Source: an uncultured Phycisphaerae bacterium
Lineage (GTDB): Bacteria > Planctomycetota > Phycisphaerae > Sedimentisphaerales > Anaerohalosphaeraceae
Length of the DNA stretch: 64,000 nt
Direction of reading: 5' to 3'
Assembly: GCA_937949545.1 (NCBI GenBank)
Contig: CALEDR010000007.1
Location: 1 to 64,000, forward strand
Part shown: positions 2,685 to 23,065 of the stretch, piece by piece
Layout: every line of letters starts with the position of its first letter
How positions within the stretch are numbered: the first letter of the stretch is position 1
The notes under the pieces: model-generated
What the model saw: only the letters and a program-made list of their open reading frames with translations
Told to the model about the DNA's origin: nothing
The model's database searches: none
Translations under genes and position numbers: made by a program

Positions 2685-2713
2685 TTGACATCGTCCTATA
2701 AAACCACTATTTT
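2685..2713 (+). promoter_or_regulatory. Strong sigma70-like promoter upstream of a small RNA
   Basis: A perfect TTGACA (2685-2690), exactly 17 bp, then TATTTT (2708-2713). No gene follows on this strand before a terminator at 2848-2888, so the promoter appears to make a short RNA of about 170 nt. Confidence 0.6.
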
Positions 2714-2719
2714 TCACAA

Positions 2720-2888
2720 AATTTTTGACTGCTTTCTATGGAGTGAGGTTTTTTAGGACAGAGAATGATTTCCGGCATAGGGTTTATTATTAAAGAAAAA
2801 TAAAACCCATAGCCGAAACATTAAAAGCAAGAGTTTTCTCCCCTCCGGAAAACATCAGGAAATCAGAATTTCCTGATGTTTTCTTTTT
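2720..2888 (+). ncRNA. Candidate structured small RNA A
   Basis: Bounded by a good promoter and an intrinsic terminator. Three helices can be read: a closing stem TGCTTT (2730-2735) with AAAGCA (2824-2829); an inner hairpin CGGC 2773-2776 with GCCG 2812-2815 and GGGTTT 2780-2785 with AAACCC 2803-2808, separated by a symmetric 3x3 internal loop; and the terminator hairpin. A 12-codon frame with AGGA before it starts at 2765 inside the inner hairpin, but its peptide shows no attenuator-like residue run. The length resembles 6S RNA, but I cannot show 6S features. Confidence 0.5.
2848..2888 (+). terminator. Intrinsic terminator
   Basis: A 16-bp perfect inverted repeat (2848-2863 with 2868-2883), a 4-nt loop and a following run of five T on the plus strand. 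It ends small RNA A and lies tail-to-tail with the lipoprotein gene. Confidence 0.85.
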
Positions 2889-2905
2889 CTAAAGAAAAGA
2901 CCTTG

Positions 2906-3334
2906 CTATTTTTCACCCAGCTTAAATTTCGAAATGTCGCCGCCCTTTTCGGCAATGTACTGCACATAAACATTCAGCCGGGCTGTCAAGTCGCTGACGG
3001 CATTGGTCAGGTTGAGAATATCTTTCTGGATGGCCTGGGCTTCGTTGCCCGCCTTCTGTGCCAGCGGAATGACGGCAAATTTTTCCATCAGTTTTTCCAG
3101 CTGGGCCTGTTTGGAGGTGATTTCATCCACATACTTCTGGGCGGTTTTTTCGAGGGAGGCCAGGTCCATCTTGGCGGCGGCTTGTTTGAGCTGCTCGATG
3201 GAGGAGGTCAGATCAATCCCCGCTGTTTCGGTTTGGGATGAAGCGGAAGGCGATGAGACCGATGAAGACCCTTTCTTTGAGCAGCCCCAGACCGCCAGCA
3301 TAACCGCCGCTGTGAGAATCAGAAACTTTTTCAT
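2906..3334 (-). CDS. Small coiled-coil lipoprotein
   Basis: 142 residues with a lipoprotein signal (M-K-K-F then a hydrophobic stretch ending A-V-W-G-C, Cys18), a Ser-rich linker and then a helical domain with heptad-like spacing (about residues 45-135, many Lys, Glu, Gln, Leu). It should be lipid-anchored in the envelope, possibly as a trimeric or dimeric coiled coil. No enzymatic motif is present. It has its own promoter and is flanked on both sides by candidate small RNAs transcribed from the opposite strand. Confidence 0.75.
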   Translation of the reverse strand: MKKFLILTAAVMLAVWGCSKKGSSSVSSPSASSQTETAGIDLTSSIEQLKQAAAKMDLASLEKTAQKYVDEITSKQAQLEKLMEKFAVIPLAQKAGNEAQAIQKDILNLTNAVSDLTARLNVYVQYIAEKGGDISKFKLGEK

Positions 3335-3479: not shown

Positions 3480-3508
3480 TTGCAAATTTCTCCGGCAGCC
3501 GATATAGT
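3480..3508 (+). promoter_or_regulatory. Sigma70-like promoter upstream of small RNA B
   Basis: TTGCAA (3480-3485), 17 bp, TATAGT (3503-3508). No open frame follows on this strand before the terminator at 3612-3641. Confidence 0.6.
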
Positions 3509-3514
3509 AATGGT

Positions 3515-3641
3515 AGATTTAATGCTCTTTTTCTTTAATACCCTATTCAGCGGGTCAAGACGGATTTGAGTAAATAAGCTTGTTCTATTTATTGAAACCC
3601 ACGTCTTGCCCAGGCAGATACGAAAGTATCTGCCTTTTTTT
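3515..3641 (+). ncRNA. Candidate structured small RNA B
   Basis: About 127 nt between a promoter and a terminator in an intergenic region without genes on this strand. A long stem pairs GGGTCAAGACG (3552-3562) with CGTCTTGCCC (3602-3611), one base bulged. Nested inside, AGTAAATA (3569-3576) pairs with TATTTATT (3586-3593). The terminator hairpin follows directly. I do not recognise a known RNA family. It could be a trans-acting regulator or an antisense RNA. Confidence 0.55.
3612..3641 (+). terminator. Intrinsic terminator with GAAA tetraloop
   Basis: AGGCAGATAC (3612-3621), GAAA loop, GTATCTGCCT (3626-3635) and a run of seven T (3635-3641). It ends small RNA B. Confidence 0.9.
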
Positions 3642-3674
3642 ATGCGCCCCCTGTGCCGGTCCGCCCTGCTACCC

Positions 3675-3872
3675 CTAAGAAATTCCGTACTCCGTCAGAT
3701 ACACCGCCAGCAGGATATGCCGCAGTTTGTCATCCGATAGACTGTCCAGACAGGGCTCGGTAAAATCCAGTTTCAGCCGACCCTTGAAATGAAGCAGCCG
3801 ATCCTTCAATTCCTGACGGGATAGAGAGGCCACCTCTGAACAAATGCTTTCATAAGTGATTTGCACACCCAT
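3675..3872 (-). CDS. Small conserved-looking hypothetical protein
   Basis: 65 residues, soluble and helical, starting M-G-V-Q-I-T-Y with a good ribosome-binding site (GGAGTG about 8 bases before the ATG). No Cys pair, membrane segment or HTH is obvious. It ends just past the terminator of small RNA B, so the two are transcribed toward each other. Function unknown. Confidence 0.55.
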   Translation of the reverse strand: MGVQITYESICSEVASLSRQELKDRLLHFKGRLKLDFTEPCLDSLSDDKLRHILLAVYLTEYGIS

Positions 3873-22989: not shown

Positions 22990-23065
22990 TCGGGGAGACA
23001 GGATTTGAACCTGCGACCTCTGCGTCCCGAACGCAGCGCTCTAAGCCAAGCTGAGCTACTCCCCG
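22990..23065 (-). tRNA. tRNA-Pro (anticodon CGG)
   Basis: Read on the minus strand the cloverleaf is complete: acceptor CGGGGAG with CTCCCCG, D arm GCTCAGC...GAGC, anticodon stem CTGCG/CGCAG with loop TTCGGGA (anticodon CGG, G37), T arm GCAGG-TTCAAAT-CCTGT, discriminator A. CCA is not encoded. It lies 96 bp behind efp on the same strand. Confidence 0.97.

What the first reader, a model, noticed from the sequence alone, without database searches (positions are those of the whole stretch)
3480..3641. Second independent structured RNA unit (B) with nested stems and GAAA-capped terminator
TTGCAA, 17 bp, TATAGT, then a 127-nt segment with a long stem (3552-3562 with 3602-3611), a nested stem (3569-3576 with 3586-3593) and a 10-bp GAAA-capped terminator. 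Together with unit A it brackets a small lipoprotein gene on the other strand, which may be a target or a neighbour in envelope stress control.
Basis: partly seen in the sequence, partly recalled or inferred. Interest (0 to 1): 0.58.

Follow-up and report, generated by a model that had tools for sequence, protein, structure and literature searches.

The report
Order-wide small RNA in Planctomycetota
A stretch between genes turns out to be a stand-alone gene for a small folded RNA, probably a gene regulator, that is kept across one order of planctomycete bacteria but is in no RNA catalogue searched here.

Summary
The promoter-like boxes, long stem, nested stem and GAAA-capped terminator are there, and the RNA folds far better than shuffles (z -5.2). 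It belongs to a family with no gathering-level Rfam match. A covariance model finds it in 106 of 161 genomes of the window's order, nearly always single copy, and nowhere else among 397 class and 392 phylum genomes. The 107 RNAs share a sigma70-type promoter, an unpaired 5' pyrimidine tract (UCUUUUYUUCU type), a main stem and a G+C-rich terminator. 16 of 17 tested pairs show compensatory changes. It is not 6S RNA, not a conserved ORF, and its neighbours change between clades.

The lipoprotein/envelope-stress idea is not: the lipoprotein is a neighbour in 3 of 107 loci and pairing with its start region is no better than shuffles. Most likely it is an Hfq-independent, trans-acting sRNA whose pyrimidine tract pairs with purine-rich ribosome-binding regions. 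No target was shown and the target tests were inconclusive. Expression is inferred, not measured.

The parts
3480..3485 (+). -35 box TTGCAA
   Evidence: promoter-like pair of at least 9/12 in 101 of 107 homologues, TTGCAA the commonest first hexamer
3503..3508 (+). -10 box TATAGT (TATAAT in 80 of 107 homologues)
3515..3642 (+). small RNA gene; start at about 3515 inferred from the -10 box, end at the terminator T-run
   Evidence: folding; covariance model hit 3513-3642, 93.2 bits
3524..3536 (+). conserved 5' single-stranded pyrimidine tract GCTCTTTTTCTTT, candidate seed
   Evidence: GCTCTTTTTCTT identical in 4 of the 5 genus RNAs, the fifth (G001) shorter; tract of the same type across the family; more unpaired than shuffle controls
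3552..3562 (+). 5' arm of main stem
3569..3576 (+). 5' arm of nested A/U-rich stem (predicted; covariation not tested)
3577..3585 (+). apical loop of nested stem
   Evidence: resembles UUG-containing interior segments in many homologues by eye
3586..3593 (+). 3' arm of nested stem
3602..3611 (+). 3' arm of main stem
3612..3641 (+). intrinsic terminator: 10-bp stem, GAAA loop, T-run
   Evidence: 8 of 8 tested pairs covary

Best explanation
A stand-alone gene for a roughly 127-nt noncoding RNA, transcribed from a sigma70-type promoter and ended by an intrinsic terminator, conserved across one order of Phycisphaerae. Inferred mechanism: the unpaired pyrimidine tract near the 5' end is a seed that pairs in trans with purine-rich ribosome-binding or start regions of several mRNAs, blocking translation or changing stability. 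The closed main stem and the terminator protect the RNA and keep the tract exposed. Hfq was not found, so it would work without it. Shown here: gene anatomy, structure by covariation, distribution, predicted exposure of the tract. Inferred: expression, base-pairing action, targets. Rough odds: noncoding RNA gene 0.95; acts by base pairing through the tract 0.6.
For: Fold z -5.23. 106 of 161 order genomes, 51 of 66 high-quality ones, mostly one strong copy; no hit outside the order in the class and phylum samples. Covariation on a MAFFT alignment not fitted to the structure: 95.7% of cells paired, 16 of 17 pairs with double changes, 354 double-change cells against 95.9 in shuffles and at most 68 in slid controls. 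Promoter of at least 9/12 in 101 of 107 against 12.9% of shuffles. 5' tract kept and exposed: mean unpaired 0.74 against 0.65 with the rest of the RNA shuffled. No conserved ORF. Neighbours differ between clades, pointing to an independent gene. No Hfq found in 21 of 21 relatives.
Against: No transcript data. No conserved perfect target: the 11-nt antisense followed within 20 nt by ATG is absent in G002, which has the RNA. Seed matches near starts in 372 genes exceed shuffled seeds only weakly (41 against 24.3, 11% of shuffles as high). The tract's U-run length varies between families, so exact pairing may be less strict than within one family. A pyrimidine tract could equally bind a protein. 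55 of 161 order genomes gave no match, including all 13 of family f5 and one same-genus genome (G003, 99% complete).
Confidence: 0.6

Rival explanations
1. A noncoding RNA that acts by binding a protein through the pyrimidine tract and/or stem-loop, as a sponge or scaffold, not by pairing with mRNAs.
For: The tract type is kept while its exact U-run length varies between families; no conserved base-paired target was found; no Hfq.
Against: Within family f1 the sequence GCTCTTTTTCTTCTTATA is kept letter for letter in many species, more than a loose pyrimidine-binding site would need. No candidate protein: PF13083 (KhpA/B) gave no hit over its cut-off in 21 genomes.
Confidence: 0.25
2. A cis-acting leader or attenuator of a downstream gene.
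For: In some f7 genomes a same-strand prepilin-like ORF lies 200-400 nt downstream; a stem before a terminator resembles attenuators.
Against: In the window the next ORF is convergent (3675-3872, minus strand). That arrangement holds in 37 of 107 loci, and queA beyond it reads the same way as the RNA in 34. Neighbours differ between clades.
Confidence: 0.06
3. A small mRNA for a leader-type or regulatory peptide (M-L-F-F-F... from the ATG at 3522).
For: A 15-codon reading frame exists in the window species (read by eye).
Against: The letters before the tract are not a conserved start codon: TG before the first tract letter in only 49 of 107 (TGC 38, TGT 11). The longest contained ORF varies from under 5 to over 40 aa.
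Confidence: 0.04
4. A diverged 6S RNA or another known family.
For: Order-wide, single-copy, structured RNA.
Against: Canonical 6S is found in all 21 genomes tested (20 over the cut-off), in G000 on contig C11, a different place. No other Rfam family at gathering level here; the permissive scan of 18 homologue loci gave only non-significant overlaps.
Confidence: 0.02
5. An sRNA that regulates or is titrated by the neighbouring RNA unit A (about 2720-2890), a Yfr1-Yfr2-like crosstalk.
For: 13-nt perfect complement TATTAAAGAAAAA of the RNA B 5' region in unit A of G000 and G004.
Against: Longest complement only 6-7 nt in G005, G001 and G002, where both RNAs exist. Duplex energy unremarkable even in G004 (41% of shuffles as good) and only suggestive in G000 (8%).
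Confidence: 0.04

Closest known systems
Yfr1 (cyanobacterial sRNA)
   Same: Taxon-wide small RNA whose most conserved part is a short single-stranded motif flanked by structure; targets many mRNAs (PMC6778093: abstract and passages seen).
   Different: No sequence relation tested; Yfr1 has its motif between two stem-loops, here the tract lies 5' of the first stem. Targets are unknown here.
Classical trans-acting sRNAs of Gram-negative bacteria (5' seed plus Rho-independent terminator)
   Same: Own promoter, single-stranded 5' region, stem, terminator with U-run.
   Different: Those often rely on Hfq or ProQ (PMC9029176, passages seen); Hfq was not found in 21 of 21 relatives; ProQ was not tested.
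OmrA-B (RF00079)
   Same: Weak permissive hit over 3555-3640 (19.3 bits, gathering 40, E 0.88).
   Different: Far below threshold, and no OmrA-B hit in 18 homologue loci: a chance match.
6S RNA (RF00013)
   Same: Conserved single-copy structured RNA.
   Different: A separate canonical 6S gene exists in all 21 genomes tested.

Membership tests
Independent bacterial small noncoding RNA gene | Own promoter | tested here: met
   101 of 107 with at least 9/12 promoter match against 12.9% of shuffles
Independent bacterial small noncoding RNA gene | Intrinsic terminator at the 3' end | tested here: met
   stem pairs 97.6% formed, all 8 with compensatory change
Independent bacterial small noncoding RNA gene | Conserved secondary structure by covariation | tested here: met
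Independent bacterial small noncoding RNA gene | No conserved coding sequence | tested here: met
Independent bacterial small noncoding RNA gene | Discrete transcript | not testable with these tools
   no RNA-seq held
Trans-acting base-pairing sRNA | Accessible conserved seed | tested here: met
   by prediction only: tract mean unpaired 0.74 against 0.65 with the rest shuffled; sequence conservation
Trans-acting base-pairing sRNA | Complementary target mRNAs, conserved | tested here: inconclusive
Hfq-dependent sRNA | Hfq encoded in the genome | tested here: not met
   0 of 21 genomes, control positive in 5 of 14
6S RNA (RF00013) | Match to the 6S model at this locus | tested here: not met
   the 6S of G000 lies on contig C11
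Any Rfam 15 family | Score at or above gathering | tested here: not met
   (only a tRNA at 22990-23065)
Cis-acting leader or attenuator | Conserved same-strand gene directly downstream | tested here: not met

The most novel reading that the evidence does not exclude
A global, Hfq-independent regulator of one planctomycete order: a single ancestral sRNA whose anti-purine tract tunes translation of many purine-rich start regions at once, comparable in reach to Yfr1 in cyanobacteria.
Probability: 0.3. Interest if true: 0.75.

Novelty: new member of a known kind. Interest (0 to 1): 0.55.

Why it matters
Few regulatory RNAs are catalogued from this part of the tree: a 2022 review table lists 8 for the whole Planctomycetes-Verrucomicrobia-Chlamydiae group against 345 for Proteobacteria (PMC9029176, table passage seen). 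An order-wide RNA with a conserved seed-like tract, in genomes without a detectable Hfq, would be a ready handle on how such bacteria regulate translation. The alignment found here is enough to define an RNA family.

Tried and rejected
Lipoprotein as target: duplex -13.6 kcal/mol, shuffled mean -14.7: rejected. The 65-aa ORF and queA start regions: same result. Unit A as pairing partner: kept as a weak rival only. Antisense pattern with ATG across the order: 125 of 161 genomes have some match; the listing was cut, so own-genome hits were not seen. Purine-rich codons (Lys/Glu) make this test noisy; the backwards-pattern control looked lower, but I did not sum it. Seed enrichment at 372 starts, from home-made ORF calls on 464 kb: weak at best. 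For the 20-nt version, one region (-60 to -10) reached 1% for 7-mers and 2.5% for 9-mers, the other tests 4.5-43%; 18 tests were run in all, uncorrected. PF13083 hits (14 of 21, none over the cut-off) lie in open frames of about 580-750 aa, so I read them as PNPase-like KH domains, from recall. Nested-stem covariation: dropped because MAFFT puts f1 and f7 partners in different columns. The genome contigs motif scan gave 24 records; 9 are real members, all titled as planctomycete MAGs, and 15 scored E 0.017 or worse or had no match. Three weak second hits (L233, L234, L235: G154, G121, G001) were dropped before the 107-sequence counts. L028, L035, L055, L059, L060, L064 and L067 were left out there too, being other extracts of RNAs already counted under another locus id. 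Paper searches; one search was too broad to be useful, and no paper on this RNA was seen in any listing. Scripts failed and were corrected in 62 and 68.

Full report
Observation. The reverse strand folds almost as well (z -4.80), so strand is assigned from the promoter and the T-run. Rfam has no gathering-level hit at this place; the permissive scan gives only OmrA-B at 19.3 bits against a gathering score of 40.

Relatives. A DNA search of 59 genomes (own included) found it in 4 of 5 other genomes of the genus (single copy in its own genome). A further match, in G038, is 24 nt of stem sequence inside other DNA and was not counted. In G005 BLAST matched the opposite strand because the stem is nearly palindromic; the true RNA is on the other strand. 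All five carry promoter boxes, the tract, main stem and terminator. A first model from five sequences matched 40 of 161 genomes of the order at E<=1. A second model from 34 MAFFT-aligned sequences matched 106 of 161 at E<=0.01: 51 of 66 high-quality genomes and 60 of 84 genera. In the class sample 68 of 397 genomes match and in the phylum sample 8 of 392, every one of them in the window's order. Misses within the order: 55 of 161, including G003 of the same genus and all 13 family-f5 genomes. The larger searches used stricter filters that lose weak matches, so misses are not proof of absence.

Names. A motif scan of named genomes gave 9 true members among 24 records, titled Sedimentisphaerales, Phycisphaerales/Phycisphaerae, Planctomycetales or Planctomycetota MAGs.

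Structure. On the 34-sequence alignment 95.3% of cells pair and 16 of 17 pairs change on both sides. On the 107-sequence MAFFT alignment the figures are 95.7%, 16 of 17, and 354 double-change cells against 95.9 in shuffles; slid controls give at most 68. The structure given to both counts was written from one homologue (L044, L165), which favours it somewhat in the percentage of cells paired. In the window species the main stem keeps its place with different letters.

Anatomy. Promoter match of at least 9/12 in 101 of 107, exact TATAAT in 80; the pyrimidine tract usually starts 16-20 nt after the -10 box, that is, about 10-13 nt from the inferred start. The tract is GCTCTTTTTCTTCTTATA in many f1 genomes and TTCTTTTCTTCTTATA or CTCTTTTTTTCTTATA in other families. 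It is more exposed than when the rest of the RNA is shuffled (0.74 against 0.65, Wilcoxon p 5e-5, sequences not independent). A UUG-containing interior segment between short A/U stretches was seen in many; a rough pattern for it matched 55 of 107.

Neighbours. The 65-aa ORF lies within 600 nt downstream, convergent, in 37 of 107, and queA lies within 1000 nt in 36; 40 of 107 have one or the other. Some other clades have a cupin-like ORF upstream or a prepilin-like ORF downstream (names from recalled motifs, not from a family search). Of 107 loci, 98 hold at least 700 nt downstream, so some adjacency may be missed. The lipoprotein is adjacent in 3 of 107.

Function. Hfq was not found in 21 of 21 relatives while the control rang in 5 of 14 named genomes. 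6S RNA is separate. Pairing tests against the lipoprotein, the 65-aa ORF and queA failed. The genome-wide pattern and the 372-gene seed test are inconclusive. I therefore hold the RNA gene as well supported by comparative evidence, and its action as an inference.

Noticed in passing
window 2685-2890 (+): Unit A: its 3' part (about 2812-2888, AAGAGTTTTCTCCCCTCC plus a long terminator stem) is 84-92% conserved in four other genomes of the genus; the fifth, G003, has no significant match. A second candidate RNA, unrelated in sequence to this one by eye.
   Followed up: partly
window 3675-3872 (-): Uncharacterised 65-aa protein with no Pfam match but found in 47 of 59 genomes searched; often convergent with the RNA and next to queA.
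   Followed up: partly
window 2906-3334 (-): Small lipoprotein-like protein with only a sub-threshold OmpH-like match (E 0.0018, below the Pfam cut-off).
   Followed up: no
L204 2029-2152 and L211 2081-2204 (genome G040): Two strong copies of the RNA in one genome (67.5 and 65.8 bits), the only clear duplication seen.
   Followed up: no
order-wide, family f5 (13 genomes) and G003: No match to the RNA in any f5 genome nor in one same-genus genome that also lacks a match to the 65-aa protein: loss, divergence or misplacement.
   Followed up: no
L176 1826-1898 (-): tRNA gene near the RNA in this genome.
   Followed up: no
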